Below, in pieces: positions 16,240-38,956 of a stretch of DNA of 64,000 bases. Below the pieces are notes generated by a model that did no database searches, was not told where the DNA came from, and saw nothing but the letters and a program-made list of their open reading frames with translations. The DNA comes from Leptasterias polaris (lineage: Eukaryota > Echinodermata > Asteroidea > Forcipulatida > Asteriidae): assembly GCA_037783415.1 (NCBI GenBank), contig JAZGTN010000178.1:620001-684000 (forward strand). Reading direction: 5' to 3'. Made by a program: the position numbers and the translations under genes. How positions within the stretch are numbered: the first letter of the stretch is position 1; each line of letters begins with the position of its first letter.

Positions 16240-17250
16240 TGTCATAAGGTATTGCAATCATAAAAGCAGATTATTATTTATATTCACTGAAAATTTGAAC
16301 AAGATACAAACAAGTTACAAACAATTTCATCGGTCACACGACTCGTATGCTTTATTATTGGTATTGTGTTCCGAAAATTAATACCAACTCCTAAAATTAA
16401 AAACGGTGTAACTTCCTTAATATTCATCATATCAATAGGCTGTTTGCATTTTTGTAATGCTTGATTCATGCCCTTTCCAATGGTGTTGGTTTTAATGGTA
16501 TCCTGTGAATTTGAAATTTTTTGTCACATACCTATAGCTAGTGGCTAGGCATTATCATTATTACATAGTCTACATGTAGGGCTATCCTCCCCAGTCCTGT
16601 TTTCGAGGTACTATGCCTTTTTCTTTGAATTTGAAAAAAATAATGATGCCATATAATTATCAACTGATGCCCTTATTACCTTCATTTGTTTAACAGAAGT
16701 ATGTAAACATATATTAAAACTTGATGGACATTGAAATTTTTACACCACCGCACGAGAGCGCGGAATTGGGCTTCATACGTCGGTTCGTATATACATGTAG
16801 CTCAAAACAAACCATGGCTCTACCATATGATAATGATTAAACCAACTAACCGTGTCGTCGATGTATTTCCTATATGGACCACGGCCATTACGGCGTGCCC
16901 TGTTCCCGTCGCCTCAGATGTCTGCAAATGCCTCCGAAAAAGTACCCAAACTTATGTTTGTGCACTCTAATGTGTAGCTCTGTTAATTTACGCTGTTTTT
17001 ATAACATTTCTTCGTCTGTAACATGTTTGTCTACTCCAAGTGTGAACTGTGGCATTTTGTAAGTACCTCTGTCATACTGTACCCGTTTTGTGCATATGGA
17101 TTGAGACCGGAAAGTGATATTTCAGCTACTTTCTTTTTTGCACATCAATCGTTTTGAACCAATGCTACGTGACCACAGGATACCAGACATCCTACAGTTA
17201 AGAAACATGACTTTATCTAGTCTGGTCCCCAGCACTACAGTAACTGCCTA
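16240..17250. other. Noncoding; possible LINE 5' region at the right end
   Basis: No gene recognised. TACATGTA occurs at 16571 and 16792. The last few hundred bases may be the 5' UTR of the LINE whose long ORF opens at 17251, just after an in-frame TAA, but no boundary is visible. Confidence 0.4.
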
Positions 17251-18657
17251 ATGGAGAGATTAACGTATAGCTCTAGCTACCTCAAAAGCCTCAACATTAA
17301 CAATAAAAACGGGGTTTCTTCCAACCAAGACATACTGAGCATATGTCTAGAGATCCAAAAATGTTGCAAAAGAACTAAACGTGGTTGTCGTGCTGGGAAA
17401 CTTCTACAAAGGAGAATTGAGGTAATTGTGAGACCTCGATCTGTCAAACCAACCTCGTACCCACGTCTACCCTCAGTGCTCTCAGTGCCGATGTGCCACA
17501 AACAAAAACCTGCTGGAACTACTACTAGCACGAATTGCCCAAAGCTGAGCTCCCTCCCAGGCTTTTTCCTCACAAACATCCGTTCAGCCATGAATAAAGT
17601 TGATGAACTTGAAGCTATCCTCAAGCAGCCATATTCCTCCCCAATTGACATTGCTGTTCTTACAGAAACCTGGCAGTCAAACATGATCACTGATGACTAC
17701 CTAGCAGTGGACGGCTTCCAGATATTTACCAAGATTAGAACTGAAAGAAGTGGGGGTGGAGTAGCGATTTATGTTAGAGACAACATCCCTGCTATGGTTC
17801 TAACCAACATTACAGTGCCCGAAGAGCTTGAATGCCTGTGGCTACAGGTTCGACCCCTTAGGCTCCCACGTCAAGTATCAAGTGTGGTTGTATGTGCAGT
17901 CTACATTCCACCTAAATCGGAACATCAGCAAACTCTGGTTAATCACATTGTCAGAACCCTCGATCTACTGAAATCAAAACATCCAGACGTGGGACTAGTG
18001 ATTTTAGGGGATCTTAACAGAACTGACACCAACCCTATATGCAGAGCTCATGCCCTGAAGCAGGTAGTTGACAAACCTACAAGAAACGATGCGATCTTGG
18101 ACGTTATCATCACTAACATTAAGAACCTGTACAGCAGTCCAGTTGTAAGTACTCCGGTTGGCCGGAGTGATCATAACACTATATATTGGTCTCCCAGTGG
18201 AAACAAGATTGTGAATGGTGTCCATGTAAGATCTGTCAGACCACTCCCCAAACCGAGCATGCATGAATTTGGCAGATGGATAACAGCTCATCAATGGGAA
18301 GAGGTTTTGAATGCTACTAGCACTGGTGAAAAATCTGATGCTTTTTATTCCACGATCAATGCTGCACTGGATCTTCACTTCCCTACCAAATTAGTCAAAC
18401 TTCACACTAATGACAAACCATGGATCACTGCTGAAATCAAGGTACTCATCAAAAAACGTCAGGTTGCATTTGCAGAGAAGAAAACATTCCTTTGGCGTCT
18501 TCTTCGTAACAAAGTCAGCCACGCCATCAGTCGAGCCAAAAAGTCGTTCTACCAAAATCGTCTCCAAGGCCTAAAATCCAGTGATCCATCAGGCTGGCAT
18601 AAAGGAATCCAAATGATCACCAATAAGACTCAGAAGCCCACTGTTATTTCCGTCCCA
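17251..18657 (+). mobile_element. CR1/L2-like LINE, 5' half: APE endonuclease and start of RT
   Basis: This is an uninterrupted frame of 469 codons. An AP-type endonuclease spans about residues 105-320: NIRSAMNKVDEL, LTETW, GGGVAIYVRD, VILGDLNRTD, LDVIITN and GRSDHN, the usual metal-binding and catalytic blocks. A basic linker then leads toward the RT. The frame is cut after codon CCA (18655-18657) by the EnSpm-like transposon and resumes in phase at 37391. With one CA duplication copy removed, the joined ORF would be about 990 codons, a normal length for EN-RT proteins of the CR1/Jockey group. No stop lies in either half, so the LINE was young when hit. Confidence 0.85.
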
Positions 18658-20070
18658 CACTGTAAAAAAACCCTGTAAATATACAAGTTTTTTGGGCAAT
18701 AAAATTACAGCAAGGCAACGTTTTTGGGGTCTGACTGAGTTTTGCTGGTAAATAAACACCAAGTTGCTGTTAATTAACATTACGACGTTTATTTACATAG
18801 TACACTTTTTTTTTTACGGAAATGATCCTTAAAAAAACGGTCTGCAATTGAAAATTACAGTTATAACTGTAAATTTCAATTGTAGGCCGTTTTTCCAGGA
18901 TCATTTCCGTCAAAATACAGGTTTCCCGTGCGTGTGAAATAAACCTGTAAAAATACACTGTAAAAATGACTGTAAAATACAATTTTTTTGGCAATAAAAT
19001 TACAGCAATGCAACGTTTTTTGGTCTGACGGAAATTAAAGGTAAATAAACGCCAACTTGCTGTTAATTAACAATTATGACGTTTATTTACATATTTTTAA
19101 CAATGAAACTGTAAATTTAAGTTGTATGCCGTTTTTTTCAGGATCGTTCCGGCAAAATACGGGTTTCCCGTGCGTGTGAAAAAAAACCTGTAAAAATACA
19201 CTGTAAAAATATCCGTAAAATACAAGTTTGTTGGCAATAAAATAACAGCATGGCAACGTTTTTTGGTCTGACGGAGTTTTGCAGGTAAATAAACGCCAAC
19301 TTGCTGTTAATTAACAATTACGACGTTTATTTACATATTTTTAACAATGAAACTGTAAATTTAAGTTGTATGCTGTTTTTTTCAGGATCGTTCCGGCAAA
19401 ATACAGGTTTCCCGTGCGTGTGAAAAAAAACACTAAAAATACACTGTAAAAATAACCGTAAAATACACGTTTGTTGGCAATAAAATAACAGCATGGCAAC
19501 GTTTTTTGGTCTGACGGAGTTTTGCAGGTAAATAAACGCCAACTTGCTGTTAATTAACAATTACGACGTTTATTTACATATTTTTAACAATGAAACTGTA
19601 AATTTAAGTTGTATGCTGTTTTTTTCAGGATCGTTCCGGCAAAATACAGGTTTCCCGTGCGTGTGAAAAAAAAAAAACACTGTACAAATGAACGTTTTTT
19701 GGCAACAAAATTACAGCATGGCAACGTGTCTTTGGTCAGACGGAGTTCTGTAAGTAAGTAAACGCCAACTTACTGTTAATTAACTACGATGTTAATTAAC
19801 ACACTTTTTACCCTGGTAACTGTAAATTAAAATTGTATGCTGTTTTTCAGGATCATTTCCGTAAACATACAGGTTTCCCATGCGTGTGAATAAACCCTTA
19901 GGGCCTATGTAAAAATACTCTGTGTAAAAACATCTTATTGGGGGGGGGGGGCAATCAAAGAATGGCAACACTTTGTGGTCTGACGGACTTTTGCAAGTAA
20001 GTTAACGCCAACTTACTGTTGTTAACATTACGACGTTTAAAATAACAGCGCACCAACGTTGGTTTGACGA
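18658..20070. repeat. 5' subterminal tandem array of about 243-bp units
   Basis: The landmark GGCAACGTTTTTTGGTCTGA starts near 18714, 19009, 19252, 19495, 19720 and 19964, with a seventh remnant near 20053. Spacings are about 243 bp apart from a longer first unit (about 295) and a shorter fourth one (225). Each unit carries CTGTAAAAAT/CCGTAAAA motifs, a conserved 'acgacgtttatttacat' and 'caggtttcccgtgcgtgtga'. Units 2-4 are nearly identical and the outer ones are degraded. Such subterminal repeats are the usual transposase or accessory-protein binding regions in CACTA elements; that role is inferred here. Confidence 0.85.
18817..18909. repeat. 93-bp near-perfect palindrome in the first subterminal unit
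   Basis: The left arm 18817-18863 (CGGAAATGATCC.. to ..TTACAGTTA) is followed without a loop by its near-perfect complement 18864-18909 (TAACTGTAAATTTC.. to ..GGATCATTTCCG). It accounts for the extra length of the first subterminal unit. Confidence 0.75.
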
Positions 20071-20074
20071 ATTT

Positions 20075-21030
20075 TGTTGATGACTGTAGACTTTCTGTTA
20101 ATAATTAACACATCGTTTATTACATAATTAAACTGTCAATTTAAATTGTAGCTATTTTTATGAATTTTCCCGCTGTCAAAATACATTGTTTCCCATTCCA
20201 GAAACCTGCAAGGATGCCCTCTATATAGTCATCTGAATATCGTCTCCTCAATGTTTTTCCCTTTTCATTTCCACCGACCCCTTTTACCTTCTTTTTGTGA
20301 CCCCCCCCCCCCCCCCCCCCAAGAAAGTTTCCCTCAACTGTTGATTTTGTAACCATTGATCATATGTTTTTATTATTTATTTATTCATTTACTTATTATG
20401 GGCCTGTAGTTTCCTTGTTAAGTCGATGGTTAATAAATTTGACGAAAAAATCCTGTAAATTTACCGTGGCTCATGTATGCAACGCACGTGGAAACTGGTA
20501 CCCTGATTTTACATACCGATATAGACAAAAAGCATTTTGGCAACCAGTGACTTTTTAGGAACCAGTCTATCCTCGCTGTACCGTGAATAACATGGGCTAA
20601 ATTTGGGAAACTAGACGAGAAGCGGGCGCGCATGATACGAACGGTTGATGACTGGCTGAGCTGTCAACTGAAGTTAGGCCTACTGAGAATTGTGTCAAAC
20701 AGCAGAATCATTGCTGCTTAAGGTATGATTATATCATTCCATTCATATTGTACGTGTAGCTTAGAATTATACGTTGTTGATGTTGGCAAAATTGGAAAGG
20801 TGTTTTGTTGTTTACTCCTTTTTTTAGAATTAACGAAAGGATTAACTTTAATTGAAACAAAATAGCCCCGGTAGCGTCATGTCCGTTGACGTTGAACGTT
20901 AGTTAGTTTATGTCACGTTTTCTCTGTGCAGACGACAATCTTGCACACAAAACCTCCAGTATCCTATGCTACAGTACCTTAACTATGTGTACTAGTACAG
21001 TACACATTTAAACCAAAAAGATCAAAAAAC
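20075..21030. promoter_or_regulatory. Leader region upstream of the transposase gene
   Basis: Nearly 1 kb lies between the subterminal array and the transposase ATG. It holds a run of 20 C residues (20301-20320) but no recognisable ORF. By position it should contain the promoter and 5' UTR; I cannot identify a TATA box or initiator with confidence. Confidence 0.35.
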
Positions 21031-23757
21031 ATGTACAACAGGACTGTTTGTCATGTTTGTGGTACACAATGTGACAGTATCAGAGCATACATACGACATT
21101 ATCAAGTACATAGACATGATCGAAATATGCGATTTCCTTGTGTGTCTGGTTGTCAAAAAACGTATTTCACATACAAAGGTCTCATTTCTCATATTGAAAG
21201 ACACCATCAACTAACGAAGGAAGAAAACAATAACAGGTACAGGGATGCTGGTGTACTTTTCCGGTGTCCACTTGATTTCTGTCAGCATGAATGTTCCGAT
21301 ATTCAGGCGCTACTTGCTCATTTAAGAAGCCATATTACAAGTGGTTTGAATGTACCTTGTCCATTTGAAGATTGTACTAAAACATTCACAAATAAAAAGT
21401 CTTTCTCTTCTCACTTATCGCGGTATCACAGAAACTACTCAGCTCATAATGTAAACCAAACATTAATTGTTGACAAAAATGTCAACTTCGATGTAAATGA
21501 TAATCCATGCCATGATGGAGCAGGTACATCCACATTTACTGAGCCTGAAGACACAGTTGATGGTGATGACAATGATCATGAAGATGACGATGATCCTGGA
21601 GTATCTGTGGCTGACTTTACCAAGAGTATTGCACTATTTCTGCTCAAATTATATTCAAAGTTCCTAGTTCCAGAGAACACTATTCAAATGATAGTGGAAG
21701 AGATGCACGATTTGTTTGAATTAAGTTGTGAGAGCGCCAAGAAGCATGTTCAGTGTATGCTTGAAAAAGCAGGTACCAACTGTTCCATTTCAAATCATGT
21801 GCTAGCTGGTAACATTTTAGATGCCATATCCGAATTGAGTTGTGCTTTGGATCCATCCAATCATTTTAAGTCCCCATTGTGTGGTGCACTTCGATCAAAA
21901 CACTGTAGGAATTGCTACTACAAAAAAGAGTTTGATTTTGTGAAGCCTGTTGAAATCAAATTGGGAGTAGATTCATCTGGCAAAACCCATGTTTGTCATT
22001 ATGTGCCTATCCAAGAAACGTTGAAAGTCATGTGGAAGGATAAATCAGTGCAAACACATATTGTACAAGCCAGTGATGTTGCACAAACCTACAGTGATGT
22101 CCATGATGGAAAGGTGTACAAGCAAAGTGCATTTTACAAAGACGATCCTAATGCCTTTCAAATAATCTTGTTCCAGGATAGTTTTGAGGTTGTGAATCCT
22201 TTGGGTTCTGCTAGATGTAAGCATAAAATTCTTGGAGTGTATTATACACTTGGAAATATTGATGCTAGGTGTAGATCACAGATAGATCCAATGCAGCTTG
22301 TCCTTCTATGCAAAGAAAAGTCAATAAAGCTCTTTGGACAAGAAGCAGTGTTTTCAAGACTTGTGCAGGATATAAAATTCCTGGAGAGAGAGGGCATTTC
22401 TGTTAATCAAGAAGTTGTCAAGGGAACCGTACTATCGATAGTAGGTGACAATTTAGGTTCTCATTTCATTGGAGGATTCTGTGAAAGTTTCAACGCTGAG
22501 TACTTCTGCCGATATTGCCTTCGAAGTAAGACAAAAATTAATGAAGAACCACCATACACCAAAGGGGTGTATCGAACAATTGAAACACATAATAATTCAC
22601 TGCAAATTTTAGAGGAAATGGTTGTTGACTCTGACAAAGGGATTAAATTTGATTCTGTGTTCAATAATTTGTCGTTCTTTCATGTGGCAAATCCTGGTTT
22701 GCCACCTTGCCTAGGACACGACCTCTTTGAAGGCATAGTGGATTATGATGTTGCTTTGTACATGTATATTCAGCATTTCATTAGATGCAATTGGTTCACC
22801 GACAAGATTTTGAATGAAGAGCTGCAGAATTTTCCATTTTGTGTAAGTGATGCAAAAGATAAGCTGTATACAGCAAAGAAAGACAAAATAGGGGGTCATG
22901 CAGTTCAGAATTGGCATTTCTTACGATTTTTCCCACTTATAATGTATAATCACATTGTAGATACTGAAGACCCTGTTTGGGAATTGCTTTTGAAGTTAAA
23001 GCAAATAGTGGAAATTGTTGTTTCACCAGTCATTTCATCCTCACAAGTGGCTAATCTCCAAGTCCTTGTTGATGAATATCTTGAAGATAGAGTCAGACTG
23101 TTTCCAGGTAAAAAGCTTCGTCCCAAGCATCACTTCTTGGGCCATTATGCGTGGCTTATACATATGTTTGGGCCACTTATTCGTGTCTGGACATTGAGGT
23201 TCGAAAGCAAACACTCTTTTTTCAAAAAGTGTGTGCGATTCAGCCAGAATTTTAAGAACATAACAGGAATGCTATCAGAGAGACATCAATTGTTTCAGGC
23301 ATTCTCCTGTCATGGGCAGCTATTTCCTGATGATGTTAAAATGCATAAAGGCATAGGATTTGATCCAAATCTTTATGCTGGAAGCATCCAACAAGCTGTA
23401 CATTTGTATTTTGGTGACAAATTTCATGATAAGAGTTGTGAAGTTTCAGATGAAGTTTTTATCTTTGGCACAAAATACACAAAGGGCAAGTATGTTCTGG
23501 TTAAATCTGCTGATTCCTGGACTTTTGCCTGCATACTTCTTGTTCTATTGATAGAGGAGGTCTACTTTCTTGTCAGACGATGTGAATGTACATATCTGCA
23601 TGAATATGGCCTTTATAAACTGTGTTCATCAGACAGTGATCACTCAAATGTAGAATGCATACCATACACTGCTCTGAAAGACTACTTCCCTTTGGCCTCT
23701 TATAACATTAGAGGCGATTCCATGATCACACTAAAAAACCAACCAAAGATTTGTTAG
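21031..23757 (+). CDS. EnSpm/CACTA-type transposase with four N-terminal C2H2 fingers
   Basis: A single uninterrupted 908-codon frame starting at ATG 21031. Residues about 8-140 carry four C2H2 fingers (CHVCGTQCDSIRAYIRHYQVHR first; also FPCVSGCQ, FRCPLDFCQ and VPCPFEDC), probably for DNA binding. An acidic linker follows (EPEDTVDGDDNDHEDDDD). The C-terminal two thirds resemble the Tnp2-like core of animal EnSpm transposases: IVGDNLGSHFIGGF (Asp473), a CRYC knuckle, CLGHDLFEGIVDYDV (Asp564) and LRFESKHSFFKK (Glu725). I propose those three acidic residues as the DDE triad. It should cut at the CACTG ends. The intact frame and unmutated motifs suggest a recently active gene. Family assignment rests on motifs and the element's ends, not a search. 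Confidence 0.85.
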   Translation: MYNRTVCHVCGTQCDSIRAYIRHYQVHRHDRNMRFPCVSGCQKTYFTYKGLISHIERHHQLTKEENNNRYRDAGVLFRCPLDFCQHECSDIQALLAHLRSHITSGLNVPCPFEDCTKTFTNKKSFSSHLSRYHRNYSAHNVNQTLIVDKNVNFDVNDNPCHDGAGTSTFTEPEDTVDGDDNDHEDDDDPGVSVADFTKSIALFLLKLYSKFLVPENTIQMIVEEMHDLFELSCESAKKHVQCMLEKAGTNCSISNHVLAGNILDAISELSCALDPSNHFKSPLCGALRSKHCRNCYYKKEFDFVKPVEIKLGVDSSGKTHVCHYVPIQETLKVMWKDKSVQTHIVQASDVAQTYSDVHDGKVYKQSAFYKDDPNAFQIILFQDSFEVVNPLGSARCKHKILGVYYTLGNIDARCRSQIDPMQLVLLCKEKSIKLFGQEAVFSRLVQDIKFLEREGISVNQEVVKGTVLSIVGDNLGSHFIGGFCESFNAEYFCRYCLRSKTKINEEPPYTKGVYRTIETHNNSLQILEEMVVDSDKGIKFDSVFNNLSFFHVANPGLPPCLGHDLFEGIVDYDVALYMYIQHFIRCNWFTDKILNEELQNFPFCVSDAKDKLYTAKKDKIGGHAVQNWHFLRFFPLIMYNHIVDTEDPVWELLLKLKQIVEIVVSPVISSSQVANLQVLVDEYLEDRVRLFPGKKLRPKHHFLGHYAWLIHMFGPLIRVWTLRFESKHSFFKKCVRFSQNFKNITGMLSERHQLFQAFSCHGQLFPDDVKMHKGIGFDPNLYAGSIQQAVHLYFGDKFHDKSCEVSDEVFIFGTKYTKGKYVLVKSADSWTFACILLVLLIEEVYFLVRRCECTYLHEYGLYKLCSSDSDHSNVECIPYTALKDYFPLASYNIRGDSMITLKNQPKIC

Positions 23758-24071
23758 GACTGCAGTTTATAGTCGACTTCATGTACCTCATGTCAAGAGG
23801 CAAACAGCTGATCCACCTACACTGTACACTGTACTCACCTTGTATTGTTTTGTAATGTGCAATGGAAAGAAATTACAAGTAGATTGTGTATGGTCTCTGT
23901 GTTCCTATAAGATTTATATTTTAAAAACATTTACATGTATGGATTAATTTTCATGTATTGATTATTAGGCGGGGTTAACCAAAATAGATGTATAATGTAC
24001 AAATATTTTTGCCCATGGTTAAACAGTTTTGGTCAAGTATTTATTGTCAATTTGCCAGCAAAACAATATAT

Positions 24072-24077
24072 AATAAA
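24072..24077 (+). promoter_or_regulatory. AATAAA polyadenylation signal after the transposase
   Basis: AATAAA lies 315 bp downstream of the transposase stop and upstream of the next gene's first recognisable exon. It is a plausible poly(A) signal for the transposase mRNA. Confidence 0.4.
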
Positions 24078-24190
24078 ACACATGTACCATGGATGTTGTG
24101 ATCAGAGTTTGGGTCAATCTGTGCCAGCCGAGTAGGGACAATCTACCCTTTCATTGACTCAACAGTTTTATTACAGATTTCAGCTTTGAA

Positions 24191-27100
24191 ATGGATGACA
24201 TTCACACTCACAGTGAAACGGGAAGTGATGTGGAGGAGCAGGAAGATGAGATTGCACAGTCAATACATACAGTTTTGCCAGCTATTCAGCCACATCGCTT
24301 TATGAAATTAGTGACCTGCTTGCAAAGATTAGGTGTTGTGTGCAAAGAGGACATGACTTATTTGGTTGAAGATGACATTGTTCCTACCCTTACCAAGATT
24401 GAAGCAAGGAAGCTGTTATCAGGTTTGAAAGTGAAAGGTTAGTAATAAAAATATAGTTTTTGATTTTTCGTGCTGCTCAAGTCATTGACAGATCCCTTTT
24501 TTTTTTTAGGGGGGGTGGGCTTAAACCACCCCGCCATGAAAAAATTTAACCAACATTAAATAAGTTAAGTGGGGGTGGGGAAGAGTTGTTACAATGTAGG
24601 TGGATTGGTAGTACATTTAAGCAAAAAATAGGTTGCACTGTTTGGTCATTTTGATCAAGTTACCTAAGGGTCCCCAGGTGACCCCCTCATGTTTGGCTGA
24701 ATTTGTTTTAAACATAGCATTATTCTTCAAACTCAGACAAAAATGAAATAAATTAAAAATATGAGAAAAATTCCAAGCGGATTGGGATTTAAGACCCTCC
24801 AAATGGGGTGTGTCACCGCCCTTTTTGACAAATGAAAATGTTGCTGACACTTTTCCGCAAATTTCATACATGTATGCTCATAATTTGTGTTTAAATAACG
24901 TGTGTATGGGCCTCAAAGTTGGTTTATTGGTCAAAGTTTGTTTAATGTTTACCCCCCCCTCCCCAAATTCACATTCAAACATAATAATAGCACTATTTTG
25001 TATAGTATAGCTAAATAGCTATATTATAAAAAAATAGTGCTATTTTATGTTTGAATGTGAATTTGGGGGGGGGGGGGGGTAAACATTCCAATTTAATAAC
25101 TGTCGAAGAATTTAAGTAGGGTTTTTAGGTGAGAATATCTCAAGATGTGATGTAGATACAGTGTTTTAGATGCCTTTTATATAGAGAGTACAGGTCAAGT
25201 TTACCCAATAAACCAACTTTCAGGCTCACATCTTTTCAAATAAATACATGTAGCTAGCTATGAGTAAATGAAAATGGACGAAAAGTGTCAGTAATATTTT
25301 CATATGTCAAAAAGGGTGGTGCCACGCCCCTTTTGGTGGGCCATAAATCCCAATCCACTAGGAATTTTGCCAGGATTTTTTGTCTGAGTTAAGGGTAAAG
25401 CTATATTTTCAAAAATGTTCAGCCAAATTTAAAGGGGTCACATGGGGGAATGTTGAAAATTTAGGTGATTTGACTTGGAATGACCCTATTAAAAAAAAAA
25501 TTTGAGAGTTTATTCAGAACATAATACATGTGTCTTACTTTGCATGATTTAATATTGATTTCACTATTTTCATTATTACATGGGAATGTGTTCATTTTTT
25601 AATCACTCCCTCCCCCACACACACATACCAATCTTTAAATTCTGGATCCACCAATGCAAGTCTTTTTAACCTAAAGGCTAACAATTTGCAGATTCAGGGT
25701 TAAAATGTACATCTCAAAAATGCTCCAATTAGTTGAAGTTTTTGGTTTTATTATAAAATTTAATAAATATTAGATTTTTCCACATTCATAGGTGTGCCTG
25801 AGAAAGCACCTGCATTGGATTCATCTGTGACAGAAGATGACTCTTCATCAGCGGCAGGCTCATCTGTGCCAGAAGATGACTTTTCATCAACTGCATCAGG
25901 CACATCTCCAATGTCATCGACTGCATCTAGTGTTCAACCTAGTGTCCCTTGGCGCAAGATGTCGAAAGATCTCCTGTCTTGTGTACAGGCTAATTTGAGT
26001 CCATCACCAAGCATGAGGAAGGAGATGATTAGAGTCATAGTAGACGATTTACACAAGCCAAACACACCACTCCCTCGCACTAAGACATTACGGTCAATTG
26101 CCCAAGAAGTCATCCGTAAATACCCAAAATCCTTCATCGACGAAGTCGACGGTGAACAAATTGGTAGCGGATACGATAGTATCCTCTCGCAACTCGTCAA
26201 CAGGGTTGATAATATTTCTCGGAGTCAGTTGTCTACAAAAAGGAAATCATCACCAGACAATGCGAGTGCAACACCTGTCAGTAAGAGAAAGCGTGATTCG
26301 TATGGATGTATTAACTGGGAACCCAGTTCTTTTCCTCAAGGTCAGACACAAGAATCGCAAATTGAACTCAAAGAACAATTAAAACAATTACACAAATCAG
26401 AACCTCACACCAAACATTCGGAGGTCATGGACCTAATGGGTTTGACTTACAGGAGTCAAAGGCAGGCAATAAATAAACCGACATGTGTGTTCCTCGACTT
26501 AACAGAACAATGGCCCTACCTCTTTGACGAAAGATTCATGTTGGAACACTTCAAAGAACTTGTTGGCATAGATGTGAAGGTGAAACTGACAAATATCTTC
26601 GAAGACAAGGTACCAAAGCTGCTACGCTTTTTGAAGCAAGGTGTTAACAACAAAAAGGTACGAACTGTCCTCACTGATATAGAGAAAGCCAATCATGAAG
26701 TAGGTGACAAAACACCACAAGTGATTGGGCTGATTCTGCTACTGTGCAGTTACTTTGGAGAGGATGAAGCTTGCCACGTCATATCAAGAGAGGTAAGGGT
26801 CACCCTATTTAATTGTTTGCATTTCAATGACTGAATGTGGAACTCACTCCAACCACAAGTGAGATCAGCTGCTGCCACCAATACTTTAAGTCCCTTCTTT
26901 AAAACATCCAAATTTAAGTACATGTAGGAGCTTACATGCAAGAGGGTCTGCGCGTTTATAGCCCAACCAAGCAGTAGCGGTTTGTGCAATATTTACAACA
27001 AGATAAGACAAGACAAAGAAACCCATCCAGTCTGAACCCATCCTGCACAATAGCCAACCCTCACTTTGCAATCACCTTGGGATTGGTGCTATTGAACTGT

Positions 27101-28569
27101 AAGCTGTGACTGTAATTTTTCCTAATTTTTCCAACTCTATTATTCTATCTGATAAGTTTTTTAACCTACATTTTAACCTACATTTTTTGTGTTTCTATGT
27201 TGTTTTATAATAGACACTTGGATATCCTATGGAGAAAGACAGACTTCCTGCAAACCCATGTTTGGTTTCATCAGGTAAGTGCATATATTGGTTTTGTTTT
27301 GTTTTGTCTGTATAAAATGGTACAGGGCTTGCTGTGTTCTTCAAACTTTACAGCCAACAAATTAACATAAAGAGTTTGTTTTAAGGCTGTTCAAGGGGGG
27401 GACCACATATTGCCCCCTTCCTCTGCATTTTCCAAAGTGTACGACTGATTAATATGTGGGGGTGTGCTCTCCCCTCCTGATAGGGTTAAAATGTCACTTA
27501 ACATGTTTGTCAGAAACATTGCATACTACAAGTCAAATCTCCATCTAAATATTTGCAAAGCATTTGTTTGTGTCTTTAATTTTACTGTCCAATACTTTCA
27601 TTACATGCACTGCAGGTAGACCACTTCAAGCTTCAAGCTTTTCACTCGCCATTGGAAAGTTTCTCGTGGCAGATTTGGCTAATCCTTTGTCAGCCCTAAG
27701 CATGTGGTTCTGTGCTTACTATTGCTTCAATTTGAAGTACCCGAACAAATCCGAAGGGGCGCTTGAGTTTATCCAGAGGTGAGTTTACTGACAATGTTCA
27801 AGAAGCTTGGCCTGTTCATGTTAGAGGAATCCCAGGGTTGATGCAGGGTTCAAATATCATGTTTTGTGTTTAACAATTGGAAACATTTAAACCTGCACTA
27901 ACCCTGAGAATTTTCGCCCTGATTCCAGGTCAGGGTTGAGATTTTTCAACCATTGATCGTAAGATAGGTATTGGTTTATTTGGTACTCATGAACAACTGA
28001 ACACAGGAGACAGCATGTACTTAGGGTGGGACCCCTAAGAGTCATATTACAAGTGGGTCTCATTGGACAGTAGGAAGTGGTCTGATATTTGGCCATACTC
28101 ATAGCACATGTATGCCCACTAGTATGTCAAGGGTCACACATAAAATTAGTGTGCACCCCTTCTTTGTCTCCCTTTCCATTGTTCCTCCCCTGCTTTTTCT
28201 GACTACAGTCTTCTTTTGTCTTTTCACTTCTTTCCACCTGGCTGCTTCTGTTACACATGTTTGTGTGTGTTGTGTTGTCATTTAGCCTTTGAGAAGGACT
28301 CTGCTAGGGTCGAAACATGACATTAACTCCTTTCTGTATCTAAACAGTTCCAACTTTTTTATGAAAAACATAACAGCACATCTTTATTTTTTAACAAAGA
28401 CAAGGCAATATTCCAATCTGTATATTTCTGTTTATATTACAGATGTTTCTTGGGCCTAAACCCAGGGACTGGCTCCAAAAGTGGACGAAAGAAGCCGTCT
28501 GTTCATCCAGGCGTACTGAAGCTGGCTAATTCAATGAAAGCCTTTGAGAATGAGTGGGACTTGATTTAA
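24191..28569 (+). CDS. Five-exon SAM-domain protein (SAMD3-like) encoded by the transposon
   Basis: Exons 24191-24437, 25792-26792, 27214-27274, 27616-27778 and 28443-28569 join with consistent phases (1, 0, 1, 2) and consensus GT..AG borders. The product is 532 aa, from MDDIHTHSETG to AFENEWDLI. Residues about 30-80 form a SAM-like fold (LVTCLQRLGVVCKEDMTYLV, DIVPTLTKIEARKLL). A Ser/Glu-rich acidic linker follows, then a helical domain (ARRED-free; IAQEVIRKYPKSF, FDERFMLEHFKELVGIDV). It resembles proteins annotated 'SAM domain-containing 3-like' in fish and invertebrates. A 3' splice site (TTACAG|ATTTCAG, 24171-24176) just before the ATG implies an upstream non-coding exon. A role like plant CACTA TnpA (binding subterminal repeats) is a guess. 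The gene appears intact. Confidence 0.8.
24637..25487. mobile_element. Fold-back element in intron 1 of the SAM gene
   Basis: A long imperfect inverted repeat. The left arm (about 24637-25005) and right arm (about 25028-25487) pair along most of their length. Matching landmarks are GGATTGGGATTTA (24780) against its complement near 25353, CCCTTTTTGACA (24819) against TGTCAAAAAGGG (25306), and ACTCAGACAAAAA (24733) against TTTTTGTCTGAGT (25377). The inner arms are almost perfect: TTCACATTCAAACATAATA on the left and its mirror after AAATAGTGCTATTTTATG on the right, bordered by C and G runs. A non-autonomous fold-back or MITE. Confidence 0.7.
26830..27100 (+). mobile_element. LINE 3'-end remnant in intron 2
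   Basis: One frame reads MWNSLQPQVRSAAATNTLSP, then FFKTSKFKYM before a stop. That is the WNSLP..VR.A.....FK C-terminal signature of CR1/L2-like LINE proteins. The rest is 3' UTR-like. The remnant is short and degraded. Confidence 0.45.
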
Positions 28570-28639
28570 AAAACATGGTACATGTAAATGTAATCATCAC
28601 ATAAAAGTTTTGGCTACTCCACCAAGATTTTTTGCAGTG

Positions 28640-28820
28640 ACACATAATTTTAATATATGTGCCATTGCAAAAACATGCAGCACATTATAAACTTGTCTCA
28701 TTTTTGTTCAGGTAATAATAGTATCAGGCCTTTAATATTAGTGGAAGTTGTACCAATAAACAAAGACCTGTGATCACATATGTATTCTTGGTGATGGGGC
28801 CAAAACTTGAGCCACTATAA
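28640..28820 (+). repeat. Diverged founder copy of the 177-bp satellite
   Basis: Starting about 70 bp after the SAM gene stop, this segment aligns along its whole length with the 177-bp satellite unit but with many differences (about 80% by eye). It shares CTTGTCTCATTTTT, AAAGACCTGTGATCACATAT and the terminal GCCAAAACTTGAGCCACTA. It contains an AATAAA (about 28755) that the array copies have lost, a plausible poly(A) signal for the SAM gene. Confidence 0.75.
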
Positions 28821-29062
28821 GGCCGTTCCAATTTTATTAGTTGGTTTACGGATTGCGGCGACGCGTTTTGTTGAAAAAACGAAAAAAATAAAAATTGGAA
28901 AATCCATTCATTTATTTTTTTTTCTTTTTTCCCCGGCTTCGAATATTCAAACTTTGGTCAGATTATTTAAAATAATTAGTCGACTTTTTATTGAGAAAAA
29001 GCTCATGAAAAAAACCCCCAAAACATCGTGTTACGTTTCGATCACGCATTGCGTTGGTCGAT

Positions 29063-29094
29063 CCATGGAGGAAGAAAATTTTCTTCCTCCATGG
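29063..29094. repeat. Perfect 32-bp palindrome
   Basis: CCATGGAGGAAGAAAA is followed directly by TTTTCTTCCTCCATGG with no spacer. GATC-containing flanks extend it imperfectly. It lies inside the Harbinger-like element. Confidence 0.9.
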
Positions 29095-29715
29095 TCGATC
29101 ATGGTCCGATGGATACAGAGTGCTTCGCGGGCCGGCAGCGCACGGCACAGAGAGCATGGAGCTATGCTCCATTGTAAGAGCTAGCTACATGTAACTCTGT
29201 GCCTCCCTCATGTTTCGATATCAAATACACACAGCGCATGGGGCTGTGCTTAATAGAGAGAACAGCCCATGTGGACCGTTCGGTAGATCAGTGGGAATGC
29301 AATACCGGCGGCTCTGGGGTTGTGTGCTAGACGGGAAGTGTAATACGCGATGTAAACGAAATAGTCTGATACTTGATGATGTAAACAAAATGCTATGTCG
29401 CATGTGATCAAGTGCAAGATTCAGCGTTCTGTCAAAGTTTGGTGGATCCAAATCACAATGAATGGCAAGCACGATCCGAGCAAAAAATACTTGTTCAGTG
29501 ACTGTAAAAGAGGGAGGAAAGCTGGATAAACCCCTTATTGATTGCTGTCTCACTGGATTAAATGATCGGTTCGTTGACCAATGCAACGGGTGTCAGTAAA
29601 AAGTCCCTTCAGAACTTCAGGTACAATTTTACTGCAACAAGTGCCGTCGACATGACGACTACCTCCGACTGCGGAACGGCTATTTAGTATTTAGCGTGGA
29701 AATTAATTCAGTTGA

Positions 29716-30130
29716 GTGACAATTAGAACTGCTCCAAAATCCATCAAAGACCTCTATAAAATACTTTAAACTCACCAGAGGAACACAGGAGATGTTGCTG
29801 TTAACATGGTGGTACGATTGTGTCAGGTACATTTCTCGAAAATGTGAACTCAAAATTTCTGTTGTGAGTCTTTACTTGTTTAGCACATTCTTGGGATTTG
29901 CACAATCTTTAGATAGCGCACAATATGAGATTGAACTGCTTAACCTTCACAGTGCAATCTTCAGGATGTGCAAATCCCAAGAATGCGCTTCTCGAGGAAC
30001 GACGCACAAAGCCAATTTTTTATTTTTTATTTTTTTTGGGGGGGGATAAATGTATCTTACACACAACGTGCCACCATATTAAAGTATTTTACACAGGTCT
30101 TTCATGGATTTTGGAGCAGTTCTTTGTCAC
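29716..30130. mobile_element. Nested fold-back within the Harbinger-like element
   Basis: The left arm GTGACAATTAGAACTGCTCC..AAAATACTTTAA (29716-29769) mirrors the right arm ending GGAGCAGTTCTTTGTCAC (30130). Further inside, ATTCTTGGGATTTGCACA (29887-29904) is exactly complementary to TGTGCAAATCCCAAGAAT (29967-29984). It can fold into one long hairpin of about 415 bp. Confidence 0.7.
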
Positions 30131-30701
30131 TTTCTGTTTGAGGGTTGTGAATCTTGTTGTAGGGCATCTGACGACAGTGCAACAAACACATCAGCATTCA
30201 CTTCGACCCTACATTACATACGCCAGATAATGTCCAAAATGTTAGGAAGCAATTTAAAATTAAGCAGCAGTTAAATTCATTTTTGTTCTTAATATACAGT
30301 CCAGAACCATTTATCTTCATTTTATAAATTTGGGTGGGTTGGGTAGTCCAGAGTTTTTAAGTGTCAAATAAAATGTTCTATCCATTCGATTCATGTGTTC
30401 GGTGGCAGAATAATAAATAAATCTCACAAAGAGATTTAAAAAAATAAAAATAATTATGGTATTAAACAGAAATTTAAAAGATGCAAAATACTTTAATAGG
30501 CTTATTGGACCTGACATGGAATAGCGAGATGGATATGGAGGCACATCCCAGTATTAAGCAGATCTTTGGTTGTTGGCCAACGGATTTCGACACTTTTATC
30601 TGTTATCATCATCATTTTTATTTTTATTTTTTTCCTGTCTGACGACTTTTTTCAACACCTAAAAAATCCGTAAACCAACTAATAAAATTGGAATGGCCTA
30701 A

Positions 30702-33700
30702 GAGATAAAAATTATGTGTCACTGCAAAAGATCTGCAACACATAAAAACTTGTCTCATTTTTATTCAGGTCATACTTTTATACAGGCCTTTAAAATCAGT
30801 TGGAGTTATGCCAGTAAAAAAAGACCTGTGATCACATGTATTCTTGGTGATGGGGCCAAAACTTGAGCCACTATTACAGATAAAAATTATGTGTCACTGC
30901 AAAAGATCTGCAACACATAAAAACTTGTCTCATTTTTATTCAGGTCATACTTTTATACAGGCCTTTAAAATCAGTTGGAGTTATGCCAGTAAAAAAAGAC
31001 CTGTGATCACATATGTATTCTTGGTGGAGTGGCCAAAACTTGAGCCACTATTACAGATAAAAATTATGTGTCACTGCAAAAGATCTGCAACACATAAAAA
31101 CTTGTCTCATTTTTATTCAGGTCATACTTTTATACAGGCCTTTAAAATCAGTTGGAGTTATGCCAGTAAAAAAAGACCTGTGATCACATATGTATTCTTG
31201 GTGATGGGGCCAAAACTTGAGCCACTATTACAGATAAAATTTATGTGTCACTGCAAAAGATCTGCAACACATAAAAACTTGTCTCATTTTTATTCAGGTC
31301 ATACTTTTATACAGGCCTTTAAAATCAGTTGGAGTTATGCCAGTAAAAAAAGACCTGTGATCACATATGTATTCTTGGTGATGGGGCCAAAACTTGAGCC
31401 ACTATTACAGATAAAAATTATGTGTCACTGCAAAAGATCTGCAACACATAAAAACTTGTCTCATTTTTATTCAGGTCATACTTTTATACAGGCCTTTAAA
31501 ATCAGTTGGAGTTATGCCAGTAAAAAAAGACCTGTGATCACATATGTATTCTTGGTGGAGTGGCCAAAACTTGAGCCACTATTACAGATAAAAATTATGT
31601 GTCACTGCAAAAGATCTGCAACACATAAAAACTTGTCTCATTTTTATTCAGGTCATACTTTTATACAGGCCTTTAAAATCAGTTGGAGTTATGCCAGTAA
31701 AAAAAGACCTGTGATCACATATGTATTCTTGGTGATGGGGCCAAAACTTGAGCCACTATTACAGATAAAATTTATGTGTCACTGCAAAAGATCTGCAACA
31801 CATAAAAACTTGTCTCATTTTTATTCAGGTCATACTTTTATACAGGCCTTTAAAATCAGTTGGAGTTATGCCAGTAAAAAAAGACCTGTGATCACATGTA
31901 TTCTTGGTGATGGGGCCAAAACTTGAGCCACTATTACAGATAAAAATTATGTGTCACTGCAAAAGATCTGCAACACATAAAAACTTGTCTCATTTTTATT
32001 CAGGTCATACTTTTATACAGGCCTTTAAAATCAGTTGGAGTTATGCCAGTAAAAAAAGACCTGTGATCACATATGTATTCTTGGTGGAGTGGCCAAAACT
32101 TGAGCCACTATTACAGATAAAAATTATGTGTCACTGCAAAAGATCTGCAACACATAAAAACTTGTCTCATTTTTATTCAGGTCATACTTTTATACAGGCC
32201 TTTAAAATCAGTTGGAGTTATGCCAGTAAAAAAAGACCTGTGATCACATATGTATTCTTGGTGATGGGGCCAAAACTTGAGCCACTATTACAGATAAAAT
32301 TTATGTGTCACTGCAAAAGATCTGCAACACATAAAAACTTGTCTCATTTTTATTCAGGTCATACTTTTATACAGGCCTTTAAAATCAGTTGGAGTTATGC
32401 CAGTAAAAAAAGACCTGTGATCACATATGTATTCTTGGTGATGGGGCCAAAACTTGAGCCACTATTACAGATAAAAATTATGTGTCACTGCAAAAGATCT
32501 GCAACACATAAAAACTTGTCTCATTTTTATTCAGGTCATACTTTTATACAGGCCTTTAAAATCAGTTGGAGTTATGCCAGTAAAAAAAGACCTGTGATCA
32601 CATATGTATTCTTGGTGGAGTGGCCAAAACTTGAGCCACTATTACAGATAAAAATTATGTGTCACTGCAAAAGATCTGCAACACATAAAAACTTGTCTCA
32701 TTTTTATTCAGGTCATACTTTTATACAGGCCTTTAAAATCAGTTGGAGTTATGCCAGTAAAAAAAGACCTGTGATCACATATGTATTCTTGGTGATGGGG
32801 CCAAAACTTGAGCCACTATTACAGATAAAATTTATGTGTCACTGCAAAAGATCTGCAACACATAAAAACTTGTCTCATTTTTATTCAGGTCATACTTTTA
32901 TACAGGCCTTTAAAATCAGTTGGAGTTATGCCAGTAAAAAAAGACCTGTGATCACATATGTATTCTTGGTGGAGTGGCCAAAACTTGAGCCACTATTACA
33001 GATAAAAATTATGTGTCACTGCAAAAGATCTGCAACACATAAAAACTTGTCTCATTTTTATTCAGGTCATACTTTTATACAGGCCTTTAAAATCAGTTGG
33101 AGTTATGCCAGTAAAAAAAGACCTGTGATCACATATGTATTCTTGGTGGAGTGGCCAAAACTTGAGCCACTATTACAGATAAAAATTATGTGTCACTGCA
33201 AAAGATCTGCAACACATAAAAACTTGTCTCATTTTTATTCAGGTCATACTTTTATACAGGCCTTTAAAATCAGTTGGAGTTATGCCAGTAAAAAAAGACC
33301 TGTGATCACATATGTATTCTTGGTGGAGTGGCCAAAACTTGAGCCACTATTACAGATAAAAATTATGTGTCACTGCAAAAGATCTGCAACACATAAAAAC
33401 TTGTCTCATTTTTATTCAGGTCATACTTTTATACAGGCCTTTAAAATCAGTTGGAGTTATGCCAGTAAAAAAAGACCTGTGATCACATATGTATTCTTGG
33501 TGGAGTGGCCAAAACTTGAGCCACTATTACAGATAAAAATTATGTGTCACTGCAAAAGATCTGCAACACATAAAAACTTGTCTCATTTTTATTCAGGTCA
33601 TACTTTTATACAGGCCTTTAAAATCAGTTGGAGTTATGCCAGTAAAAAAAGACCTGTGATCACATATGTATTCTTGGTGATGGGGCCAAAACTTGAGCCA

Positions 33701-36700
33701 CTATTACAGATAAAAATTATGTGTCACTGCAAAAGATCTGCAACACATAAAAACTTGTCTCATTTTTATTCAGGTCATACTTTTATACAGGCCTTTAAAA
33801 TCAGTTGGAGTTATGCCAGTAAAAAAAGACCTGTGATCACATATGTATTCTTGGTGGAGTGGCCAAAACTTGAGCCACTATTACAGATAAAAATTATGTG
33901 TCACTGCAAAAGATCTGCAACACATAAAAACTTGTCTCATTTTTATTCAGGTCATACTTTTATACAGGCCTTTAAAATCAGTTGGAGTTATGCCAGTAAA
34001 AAAAGACCTGTGATCACATATGTATTCTTGGTGGAGTGGCCAAAACTTGAGCCACTATTACAGATAAAAATTATGTGTCACTGCAAAAGATCTGCAACAC
34101 ATAAAAACTTGTCTCATTTTTATTCAGGTCATACTTTTATACAGGCCTTTAAAATCAGTTGGAGTTATGCCAGTAAAAAAAGACCTGTGATCACATATGT
34201 ATTCTTGGTGATGGGGCCAAAACTTGAGCCACTATTACAGATAAAAATTATGTGTCACTGCAAAAGATCTGCAACACATAAAAACTTGTCTCATTTTTAT
34301 TCAGGTCATACTTTTATACAGGCCTTTAAAATCAGTTGGAGTTATGCCAGTAAAAAAAGACCTGTGATCACATATGTATTCTTGGTGGAGTGGCCAAAAC
34401 TTGAGCCACTATTACAGATAAAAATTATGTGTCACTGCAAAAGATCTGCAACACATAAAAACTTGTCTCATTTTTATTCAGGTCATACTTTTATACAGGC
34501 CTTTAAAATCAGTTGGAGTTATGCCAGTAAAAAAAGACCTGTGATCACATATGTATTCTTGGTGATGGGGCCAAAACTTGAGCCACTATTACAGATAAAA
34601 ATTATGTGTCACTGCAAAAGATCTGCAACACATAAAAACTTGTCTCATTTTTATTCAGGTCATACTTTTATACAGGCCTTTAAAATCAGTTGGAGTTATG
34701 CCAGTAAAAAAAGACCTGTGATCACATATGTATTCTTGGTGATGGGGCCAAAACTTGAGCCACTATTACAGATAAAAATTATGTGTCACTGCAAAAGATC
34801 TGCAACACATAAAAACTTGTCTCATTTTTATTCAGGTCATACTTTTATACAGGCCTTTAAAATCAGTTGGAGTTATGCCAGTAAAAAAAGACCTGTGATC
34901 ACATATGTATTCTTGGTGGAGTGGCCAAAACTTGAGCCACTATTACAGATAAAAATTATGTGTCACTGCAAAAGATCTGCAACACATAAAAACTTGTCTC
35001 ATTTTTATTCAGGTCATACTTTTATACAGGCCTTTAAAATCAGTTGGAGTTATGCCAGTAAAAAAAGACCTGTGATCACATATGTATTCTTGGTGATGGG
35101 GCCAAAACTTGAGCCACTATTACAGATAAAAATTATGTGTCACTGCAAAAGATCTGCAACACATAAAAACTTGTCTCATTTTTATTCAGGTCATACTTTT
35201 ATACAGGCCTTTAAAATCAGTTGGAGTTATGCCAGTAAAAAAAGACCTGTGATCACATATGTATTCTTGGTGATGGGGCCAAAACTTGAGCCACTATTAC
35301 AGATAAAAATTATGTGTCACTGCAAAAGATCTGCAACACATAAAAACTTGTCTCATTTTTATTCAGGTCATACTTTTATACAGGCCTTTAAAATCAGTTG
35401 GAGTTATGCCAGTAAAAAAAGACCTGTGATCACATGTATTCTTGGTGATGGGGCCAAAACTTGAGCCACTATTACAGATAAAAATTATGTGTCACTGCAA
35501 AAGATCTGCAACACATAAAAAATTGTCTCATTTTTATTCAGGTCATACTTTTATACAGGCCTTTAAAATCAGTTGGAGTTATGCCAGTAAAAAAAGACCT
35601 GTGATCACATATGTATTCTTGGTGATGGGGCCAAAACTTGAGCCACTATTACAGATAAAAATTATGTGTCACTGCAAAAGATCTGCAACACATAAAAAAT
35701 TGTCTCATTTTTATTCAGGTCATACTTTTATACAGGCCTTTAAAATCAGTTGGAGTTATGCCAGTAAAAAAAGACCTGTGATCACATATGTATTCTTGGT
35801 GATGGGGCCAAAACTTGAGCCACTATTACAGATAAAAATTATGTGTCACTGCAAAAGATCTGCAACACATAAAAACTTGTCTCATTTTTATTCAGGTCAT
35901 ACTTTTATACAGGCCTTTAAAATCAGTTGGAGTTATGCCAGTAAAAAAAGACCTGTGATCACATATGTATTCTTGGTGGAGTGGCCAAAACTTGAGCCAC
36001 TATTACAGATAAAAATTATGTGTCACTGCAAAAGATCTGCAACACATAAAAACTTGTCTCATTTTTATTCAGGTCATACTTTTATACAGGCCTTTAAAAT
36101 CAGTTGGAGTTATGCCAGTAAAAAAAGACCTGTGATCACATATGTATTCTTGGTGATGGGGCCAAAACTTGAGCCACTATTACAGATAAAAATTATGTGT
36201 CACTGCAAAAGATCTGCAACACATAAAAACTTGTCTCATTTTTATTCAGGTCATACTTTTATACAGGCCTTTAAAATCAGTTGGAGTTATGCCAGTAAAA
36301 AAAGACCTGTGATCACATATGTATTCTTGGTGGAGTGGCCAAAACTTGAGCCACTATTACAGATAAAAATTATGTGTCACTGCAAAAGATCTGCAACACA
36401 TAAAAACTTGTCTCATTTTTATTCAGGTCATACTTTTATACAGGCCTTTAAAATCAGTTGGAGTTATGCCAGTAAAAAAAGACCTGTGATCACATATGTA
36501 TTCTTGGTGGAGTGGCCAAAACTTGAGCCACTATTACAGATAAAAATTATGTGTCACTGCAAAAGATCTGCAACACATAAAAACTTGTCTCATTTTTATT
36601 CAGGTCATACTTTTATACAGGCCTTTAAAATCAGTTGGAGTTATGCCAGTAAAAAAAGACCTGTGATCACATATGTATTCTTGGTGATGGGGCCAAAACT

Positions 36701-36755
36701 TGAGCCACTATTACAGATAAAAATTATGTGTCACTGCAAAAGATCTGCAGCACAT
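30702..36755. repeat. 177-bp satellite array, about 34 copies
   Basis: Head-to-tail units of 177 bp, nearly identical. Variation is confined to a few diagnostic sites: GTGATGGGGCC (type A) or GTGGAGTGGCC (type B); ATAAAAATTATG or ATAAAATTTATG (type F); a 2-bp deletion (CACATGTATT instead of CACATATGTATT) in three 175-bp units ending near 30838, 31902 and 35439; and AAAAATTG for AAAACTTG in two units near 35520 and 35697. The last unit is partial and ends near 36755. Because 177 is divisible by 3, one frame stays open for long stretches; I do not consider it a gene. Confidence 0.95.
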
Positions 36756-36775
36756 AATTTGTGATGTAATATACG

Positions 36776-36870
36776 TGTAATGTTCTGTTCTGATAGTGGA
36801 ACAAAAAATAGACAAGTTTGTATTATAAATTTAGTTATTTTTTGTTACACCATCAGAACAGAACATTACA
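36776..36870. repeat. Hairpin with perfect 19-bp arms after the satellite
   Basis: TGTAATGTTCTGTTCTGAT (36776-36794) and ATCAGAACAGAACATTACA (36852-36870) are exact complements around a 57-bp loop. It sits at the junction of the satellite and the 3' subterminal region. Confidence 0.8.
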
Positions 36871-36989
36871 CCGTTATTTACAAATGCTTAAATGTTGGAG
36901 ATGTTTTTGTTCTGCTTTTCTTGTTTGTTCTTCGGGTTCCAAGAAGGTATATGCCAAAGTTTGCCAAGTTTTTACATGTTTGTGGTTTG

Positions 36990-37388
36990 AGGATGTTGAG
37001 CGCTAAATAAAAAGAAATCGAAACCCTACACTGATGTGTTCCGGTAATGTTATTAATTGTTTGTTCTTGATGTTTCCAGTTATTAAATTGACGTGTATTT
37101 TACGGTAAGGTACGGAACGTGATTTTACTGGGCTGATTTTGTGAAATTAATTTCAAAAAGCTGTGATTTTAAAACAAAAGTTATGTGAAAGGACGGTGGA
37201 GCTATCCTATTTTTACAAGCCTCTCCTTGTAAAATCACAGCGACGAACCATATTTTTACAACACCGAAGGTACAGTGGTTTAACAGTGTGGCCTGTACAT
37301 TTACTCTAAACCGTTTATTTACGGGATAGTACTGGCGTCCAAACTGCCAGGAAAAAACCGTAAAAATACGATTTTTTTTTTTACAGTG
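36990..37388. promoter_or_regulatory. 3' subterminal region of the EnSpm-like element
   Basis: Contains scattered TTTTACGG, TTGTAAAATCACAG, ATTTTTACA, CCGTTTATTTACGGG and CCGTAAAAATACG motifs. They resemble the motifs in the 5' subterminal units but are not arranged as regular repeats. It ends in T-rich TTTTTTTACAGTG. Asymmetric subterminal regions are known for CACTA elements. Confidence 0.6.
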
Positions 37389-37390
37389 CA

Positions 37391-38956
37391 GGCATACCCC
37401 AGAATGATGACAAAGCTATCGCCGAGGCAATTAACCTGGACTTTGCTTCTGTCTGTCAAAGCAGGCCCCCTATCAATCTGAAGGAACTGCCTGCTTACCT
37501 ACCTGCAGAACCTACGCCTCAAATCAAAGTATGGGATATGTACAATGCTCTCAAAAAAATATGTGCCAAGAAATCAGCAGGCCCTGATGGGCTCCCAGGA
37601 AAACTAATCAAAGAATTCGCATGTGAGCTCAGCATACCTGTTTCTGATATATTCAATTCGTCTCTTGTTGAGGGTTGCGTACCACAGATTTGGAAGGATG
37701 CAATTGTCGTGCCAATTCCTAAAGAAACACCAGCCACCATTACAAAGCTGAGACCTATTTCACTAACTGCTCTCCTAGCAAAAATATGCGAAGGGTTCGT
37801 CTCAAAATGGGTGCTTGAAGACATCCACACATCTATCGGCCGTAACCAGTATGGTAGTATACAGGGGTCATCAACTACTCACTGCTTAATTGAACTCCTT
37901 GATGTGCTCTACAAGGGAACTGACAAAGCCGATACAGTTGGCACGCTGGTAGTGACGGACTTTTCCAGGGCTTTTGACTGCGTCGATCATACTTTGGCAA
38001 TTCAGAGATTACATGACCTAGGTGTCCGTAGCGAAATAATGCCGTGGATCGTAAATTTCCTGACGGCACGCCGCCAGAGAGTTCGATACCACTCTGCCCT
38101 ATCAGAATGGGAAACCATCTCTTGTGGAGTTCCACAGGGTACGAAATTGGGACCCATTGTATTCATTGGCGTTATAAATGAGGCTTCTGAAAGTACCAAT
38201 TCTTCTAGTTTTAAGTATGTTGATGATCTAAGCCTTGCTGAGGTCCGTCCTGCCAATGTGCCTACTCAGATTGACTTGGACCTTCGAGACCTTGAGGATT
38301 GGGCTGACAGTAACCACCTCAAGCTCAATCCCTCTAAATGCAAGGTTATGCAAGTGTGCTTCAAAAGAAACCCTCCATGTCCTCCTGATATGAAGATTGC
38401 TGACAAGGGGCTTGAGCTGGTTACTGGGATCAAGCTTCTCGGTCTCACTGTTCAATCGGATCTTAGATGGGACTCTCAGGTCAATGATATGGTGTGTAAG
38501 AGCAGTCGCAGACTTTACATGCTTGGTCGTCTCAAGCGTTTTGGTGTACCCGTTGAGGACTTGGTATCTGTGTATGTTGGCTATGTGCGTCCTTCAGTTG
38601 AGTATGCGTCTCCTGTGTGGCATGGTTGCATCAGTAAACAGCAAACTCATCAAATTGAAAGAATTCTAAAAAGAGCGTGTCACGTGATCCTTGGGAACAA
38701 CTATATTACATACACGGATGCTCTTGACCTCATGGGTCTCCAGACGCTTGAAGATAGACGTGATCAATTATGTACAAACTTTGCTGTTAAATGTAGTACC
38801 TCTGATAGATATGCTGGTTGGTTCCCTCATAACAACAACACTCACAGTATGGGTCTTCGCAATGCTACTAAATATATGGTGCCTAAACATAGGACTAAGC
38901 GTTATGGCAACAGTGCAATTCCATTCCTTACTAAACTTTTAAACCAATCCTCTTAG
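37391..38956 (+). mobile_element. CR1/L2-like LINE, 3' half: reverse transcriptase
   Basis: The frame resumes in phase with the half that ends at 18657 and stays open to TAG 38954-38956 (521 codons). RT blocks are visible: KKSAGPDGLPGKLIKEF, LRPISLTALLAKI, NQYGSIQGSSTTHCL, VVTDFSRAFDCVDH, CGVPQGTKLGP and the catalytic FKYVDDLSLAE (about 38212-38240). Thumb and C-terminal blocks follow (LKLNPSKCKVM, LGLTVQSDLRWD, VEYASPVWH, FLTKLLNQSS). No lesions are visible. Confidence 0.9.

What the first reader, a model, noticed from the sequence alone, without database searches (positions are those of the whole stretch)
18658..37388. Precisely delimited 18.7-kb EnSpm/CACTA-type element inside an intact LINE ORF
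Seen: 13-bp CACTG inverted ends, CA duplication, and exact restoration of a LINE EN-RT reading frame when the element and one CA are removed. Both element genes have intact-looking frames. Known: animal EnSpm elements start CACTG and make 2-3 bp duplications. Inference: a recently mobile, unusually large autonomous copy carrying a satellite and a passenger transposon.
Basis: partly seen in the sequence, partly recalled or inferred. Interest (0 to 1): 0.9.

Follow-up and report, generated by a model that had tools for sequence, protein, structure and literature searches.

The report
Satellite-carrying jumping gene in sea star
A young, probably self-mobile DNA transposon of the CACTA kind has landed inside a retrotransposon of what appears to be a sea-star genome; it carries its own satellite DNA, whose length differs about threefold between almost identical copies.

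Summary

Refinements: complete sisters are 12.8 kb. This copy is large because its 177-bp satellite has 35 unit starts (others 11, 11, 21) and a 1,878-bp insert with TAA duplication split the array. All 82 satellite matches found lie inside the four copies. A second gene lies 3' of 30 of 38 related transposases, 0 of 10 more distant ones. New variant of a known kind; a quinoa CACTA is a close structural parallel. Activity, the partner's role and the cause of array change are inferred.

The parts
17221..18657 (+). left part of host LINE ORF (endonuclease), interrupted by the element
   Evidence: open frame, Exo_endo_phos 4.4e-08
18656..18657 (.). target site duplication CA (left copy)
18658..37388 (+). 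whole EnSpm/CACTA element, 18,731 bp
   Evidence: ends, TSD, empty site, 3 sister copies
18658..18670 (+). left terminal inverted repeat CACTGTAAAAAAA
18865..19898 (+). left subterminal array, 243 bp x 4.3; CACTGTAAA recurs at 18956, 19199, 19442, so the unit holds a copy of the terminus; 2.3 to 4.3 units in the four copies
20983..23757 (+). transposase, 924-codon open frame (first ATG 21031): C2H2 zinc fingers, RAG1-like DDE core (D399, D489, C509-x2-C512, H716/H717-H721, E741), C-terminal BAH-like fold 784-919
24191..28569 (+). second gene, five exons (24191-24437, 25792-26792, 27214-27274, 27616-27778, 28443-28569 in the model used; one search left 24 open models differing slightly at splice sites), 532 aa; N-terminal SAM/HhH-like helical domain (weak), rest unassigned
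   Evidence: (P0105, Asterias amurensis, 532 aa, 96% over 100%)
28625..28654 (-). 30-mer at the left edge of the satellite array, inverted copy of part of the monomer
28656..28818 (+). first, diverged satellite monomer (about 85% to the others)
28821..30698 (.). passenger: 1,878-bp TIR element, TAA at 28818-28820 and 30699-30701, absent from the three sister copies
30703..36757 (+). 177-bp satellite array, 34 copies after the passenger
36768..36878 (.). imperfect palindrome, 55-nt arms (82%), just 3' of the array
37114..37388 (+). right subterminal unit; one here, about 2 to 3 in the sister copies
37376..37388 (-). right terminal inverted repeat
37389..37390 (.). target site duplication CA (right copy)
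37391..38956 (+). right part of host LINE ORF (reverse transcriptase)
   Evidence: RVT_1 2.4e-24

Best explanation
The stretch is a complete, recently inserted, probably autonomous animal EnSpm/CACTA DNA transposon. Its transposase (zinc fingers plus RAG1-like DDE core) most likely pairs the CACTG ends, cuts the element out and joins it to staggered cuts 2 bp apart, giving the 2-bp duplications. The second gene, kept downstream in related elements, most likely makes the partner protein that works with the transposase, as TNPA does in maize Spm. The 177-bp satellite was in the element before the four copies spread and changes length by unequal exchange or copying slippage, perhaps during gap repair after excision. 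SHOWN: ends, duplications, empty site, sister copies, gene adjacency, satellite found only in the element and variable in the assembly. INFERRED: activity, cut-and-paste chemistry, the second protein's role, the mechanism of array turnover.
Confidence: 0.9

Rival explanations
1. The element captured a pre-existing genomic satellite, as was proposed for quinoa CACTA elements, and the array is cargo without any tie to the element.
For: Capture is the authors' favoured reading for the quinoa case (section 10 and passages). Monomer length (177 bp) is near a nucleosomal length (recalled).
Against: 82 of 82 genome matches found lie inside the four copies; the four share array edges and a diverged first monomer.
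Confidence: 0.2
2. The satellite with its inverted 30-mer and palindrome is a separate mobile element (for example a Helentron-type element with internal repeats) nested in the CACTA before it spread.
For: Inverted 30-mer at the left edge, array, then a palindrome at 36768-36878; that such elements carry arrays is recalled, from no call.
Against: No copy of the monomer outside the four elements was found. A target duplication or empty site for such an insert was not seen, but was not searched for systematically.
Confidence: 0.15
3. The array-length differences are assembly artefacts.
For: Tandem arrays are prone to collapse; one assembly only.
Against: Copies differ in monomer variants as well as number: B has one variant in 9 of 10 units, C another in 9 of 10, D that one in 14 of 20, A is a mosaic with a six-unit block twice and three 175-bp units.
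Confidence: 0.1
4. The four copies arose by segmental duplication instead of transposition.
For: Two copies lie on the same contig (C178).
Against: The 40-bp flanks shown differ and each copy with both ends has its own 2-bp duplication (CA, AA, TA); an empty LINE exists.
Confidence: 0.02

Closest known systems
Maize En/Spm and plant CACTA elements (Tgmt*, 20.5 kb, soybean; PMC2613891, passages)
   Same: CACT-type 13-bp ends, subterminal repeats, transposase plus second function, size near 20 kb
   Different: Tgmt* made a 3-bp duplication; here CACTG ends and 2 bp. Kinship of the second protein to TNPA was not tested
Animal CACTA elements: SmTRC1 of Schistosoma (PMC1636069, passages)
   Same: 2-bp duplications (7 of 14 copies there), Transposase_21 kinship, shorter second product
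   Different: ends begin CCC in the related elements (passages); no satellite in the passages seen
Chenopodium quinoa CACTA with satDNA (PMC8978399, section 10 and passages)
   Same: 16.5 kb, 32.5 x 171 bp near the 3' end, 3' of the coding region; here 18.7 kb, 34 x 177 bp near the 3' end
   Different: there read as capture, with arrays also near elements; here found only in the element
RAG1, ProtoRAG (BbRAGL), Transib
   Same: predicted catalytic fold, D-D-C2C-H-E order
   Different: about 10% identity; here C2H2 fingers and a BAH-like tail; longer duplications there (recalled)
Tetris foldback element of Drosophila virilis (PMC4079207, abstract and passages)
   Same: tandem repeats inside a DNA transposon, with copy-number change
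   Different: non-autonomous foldback, repeats lie in the inverted ends and also form longer satellite-like arrays

Membership tests
EnSpm/CACTA | terminal inverted repeats beginning CACT | tested here: met
   13 bp CACTGTAAAAAAA both ends in A; C the same, B's right end has one extra base
EnSpm/CACTA | 2-3 bp target duplication | tested here: met
   CA, AA, TA in 3 of 3 copies with both ends; the fourth copy lacks its right end
EnSpm/CACTA | Tnp2 (Transposase_21) transposase by profile | tested here: inconclusive
   7 of 20 alignment members match at E up to 1, best 1.1e-06; the window protein itself is not one of them
EnSpm/CACTA (CMCT group) | D, D, C(2)C, H(3-4)H, E in order | tested here: met
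   positions 399, 489, 509/512, 716 or 717/721, 741; definition from PMC12730594 passages
EnSpm/CACTA | oriented subterminal repeats near the ends | tested here: met
EnSpm/CACTA | second, TNPA-like DNA-binding protein | tested here: inconclusive
   second gene conserved downstream; DNA binding and kinship to TNPA untested
EnSpm/CACTA | mobilised in cells | not testable with these tools
   only sequence traces: empty site and sister copies
RAG1/Transib-like transposase | RAG1-like catalytic fold | tested here: met
BAH domain | BAH sequence profile | tested here: not met
   0 of 26 C-terminal pieces hit a BAH family, E up to 10; no BAH chain
BAH domain | BAH fold | tested here: inconclusive
PIF/Harbinger (passenger) | 3-bp TWA-type target duplication and TIR | tested here: met
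   TAA both sides, 35-bp TIR at 97%; that this is the Harbinger pattern is recalled
PIF/Harbinger (passenger) | Harbinger transposase or autonomous relative | not tested
   no frame inside longer than 129 aa; genome search did not complete
LINE (host) | endonuclease plus reverse transcriptase in one frame | tested here: met
   clade not determined

The most novel reading that the evidence does not exclude
Animal EnSpm elements of one large clade are two-component RAG1-like systems: a zinc-finger transposase with a chromatin-reader-like (BAH-fold) tail and a conserved SAM/HhH-type partner. In this family the 3' region has turned into a nucleosome-length satellite that is grown and trimmed at or between jumps, as in a quinoa CACTA, so that CACTA elements repeatedly act as satellite nurseries in animals and plants.
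Probability: 0.3. Interest if true: 0.7.

Novelty: new variant of a known kind. Interest (0 to 1): 0.5.

Why it matters
It is a snapshot of a satellite changing inside a mobile element: four copies about 0.2% apart with 11 to 35 units, and no unit found elsewhere in the assembly. That favours 'grown inside' over 'captured' for one case, where the quinoa authors leaned to capture. It also ties a widespread animal transposase family, which the named records seen call uncharacterized, hypothetical or unnamed (or by a zinc-finger domain), to a RAG1-like predicted fold and to a conserved neighbour gene; both links can be tested.

Tried and rejected
Satellite as coding: a frame is open through 177 = 3 x 59 bases, and Pfam reports STAT_linker, GldN and PCYCGC on it; taken as artefacts of a repeated frame, since 175-bp units break it. 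BAH by sequence: none. PDB by sequence for the transposase: the best row is a zinc-finger protein, E 0.007. SAM domain of the second protein in Pfam: one weak hit, E 0.18, in 1 of 5 proteins. The rest of the second protein (about 130-532) gave no match to trust. A name 'SAMD3-like' came to mind from memory and is not used as evidence. Paper searches: in the listings and the starts of abstracts shown I saw no description of such a partner gene, BAH-like tail or satellite in an animal EnSpm; this covers open-licence papers only, and most listed papers were not opened. Gene adjacency outside this genome: P0003/P0125 (both ena, longest contig 5833) and P0064/P0124 (both jgi, 7299) share source and contig length, suggestive only. 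One of six fetched relatives, the 32% one, had no second gene within 8 kb. Rows left out: 4 of the 52 (fragments of loci already listed) and 34 of the 76 (small exons, second pieces and weak rows).

Full report
Where it lies. The window is G000:C178:620001-684000 of a 629.7-Mb genome in 334 contigs. No name is given; the second gene is 96% identical to an Asterias amurensis protein and its relative on C174 97.7% to an Asterias rubens one, so I infer a sea star close to Asterias.

The insertion. The ends are a perfect 13-bp inverted repeat, CACTGTAAAAAAA, flanked by CA on both sides. Removing 18,731 bp and one CA gives a LINE frame of 479 + 521 = 1000 codons through the join (coordinates; translation), with an endonuclease domain left and a reverse transcriptase right. 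Joined flanks match C58:4902863-4903170 at 308 of 308 bases, and two other LINE copies span the join at 92% and 89% (6 rows, two of them the window itself and one covering only the right part). The empty LINE is 100% identical over 395 bp and 99.64% over 1652 bp of the 3.3 kb held, so the LINE copies parted recently, and the insert is younger than the LINE copy it sits in.

The family. The first 203 bp find four full left ends; the last 300 bp show three copies that reach the right terminus, A over 300 bp, B and C over the last 275 bp at 91%. Copies: A (window, 18,731 bp), B (C216, 12,809), C (C249, 12,812), D (C178 reverse strand, right end missing, with about 2 kb of an RT-like insert, judged by eye). 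Duplications: A CA, B AA, C TA. In about 7.95 kb of core the six pairs differ at 12 to 18 sites, 0.15-0.23%. No mutation rate is at hand, so no date is given. The transposase frame is 924 codons in A, 921 in C, and broken in B and D. The five exons of the second gene align over their full length in B, C and D; only exon 2 differs, with 1 mismatch in each and gaps of 9 nt (C) and 3 nt (D).

Satellite. A has one diverged monomer, the passenger, then an array with 35 unit starts (34 whole units and a partial one); B, C and D have 11, 11 and 21 unit starts, each also after a diverged first monomer. Of 74 whole units only 7 distinct sequences exist; one variant makes up 9 of 10 units in B, another 9 of 10 in C and 14 of 20 in D, and A is a mosaic that begins with the block FBCABC twice. 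All 82 genome matches lie inside the four copies (five candidate regions scored, so a lower bound). Left and right subterminal arrays vary too: 4.3, 2.3, 4.3, 4.3 left units in A to D; right 1 in A, 2.9 in B, about 2 in C, and a second unit cut short in D. Unequal exchange or slippage, possibly in gap repair after excision, explains this; none of it is shown. A quinoa CACTA has 32.5 x 171 bp in the same relative place; its authors favour capture. Here the lack of matches elsewhere favours growth inside the element.

Passenger. 28821-30698, 1,878 bp, with TAA on both sides; copies C and D align straight through that point, and B lacks it too. The simplest reading is that it entered this copy after the family spread; it sits between monomers one and two, in phase. 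Its TAA and TIR suggest PIF/Harbinger (recalled); its other copies could not be searched.

Verdict. Observation confirmed, interpretation supported with refinements. A new variant of a known kind: young animal CACTA, two genes, a satellite found only in it.

Noticed in passing
G000:C216:52907-132421; C178; C36; C58: EnSpm-type transposases look clustered: of the 48 loci, 4 lie within 80 kb of the 496-kb contig C216, 6 on C178 (1.75 Mb), 4 on C36, 9 on C58 (9.5 Mb). Unexplained; perhaps a transposon-rich chromosome region. No test against chance was made.
   Followed up: no
window 2760-6592: Pao/BEL-type LTR retroelement pieces (DUF1759, Peptidase_A17, RVT_1). Described only.
   Followed up: no
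window 11958-12962: RNase H of an LTR retroelement (RT_RNaseH_2 1e-32). Described only.
   Followed up: no
window 24672-25447: Nested inverted repeats (113-nt arms 81%, 33-nt arms 97%) inside intron 1 of the second gene; possibly an old MITE.
   Followed up: no
window 36768-36878: 111-bp imperfect palindrome directly 3' of the satellite array.
   Followed up: no
L039, L041, L042, L044 (3' of the second gene): Other EnSpm families in this genome also have tandem arrays 3' of the second gene (periods 107; 73 and 118; 208 and 108; 242), 4 of the 5 fetched loci with that gene.
   Followed up: partly
window 18658-19450: The 243-bp left subterminal unit holds a copy of the terminus (CACTGTAAA at 18658, 18956, 19199, 19442), so the left end is an iterated terminus.
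   Followed up: partly
G000:C174:1100414-1108211 (L039): A 63%-identical relative keeps the last 60 bp much alike, ending TTTTACAGTG followed by TA.
   Followed up: partly
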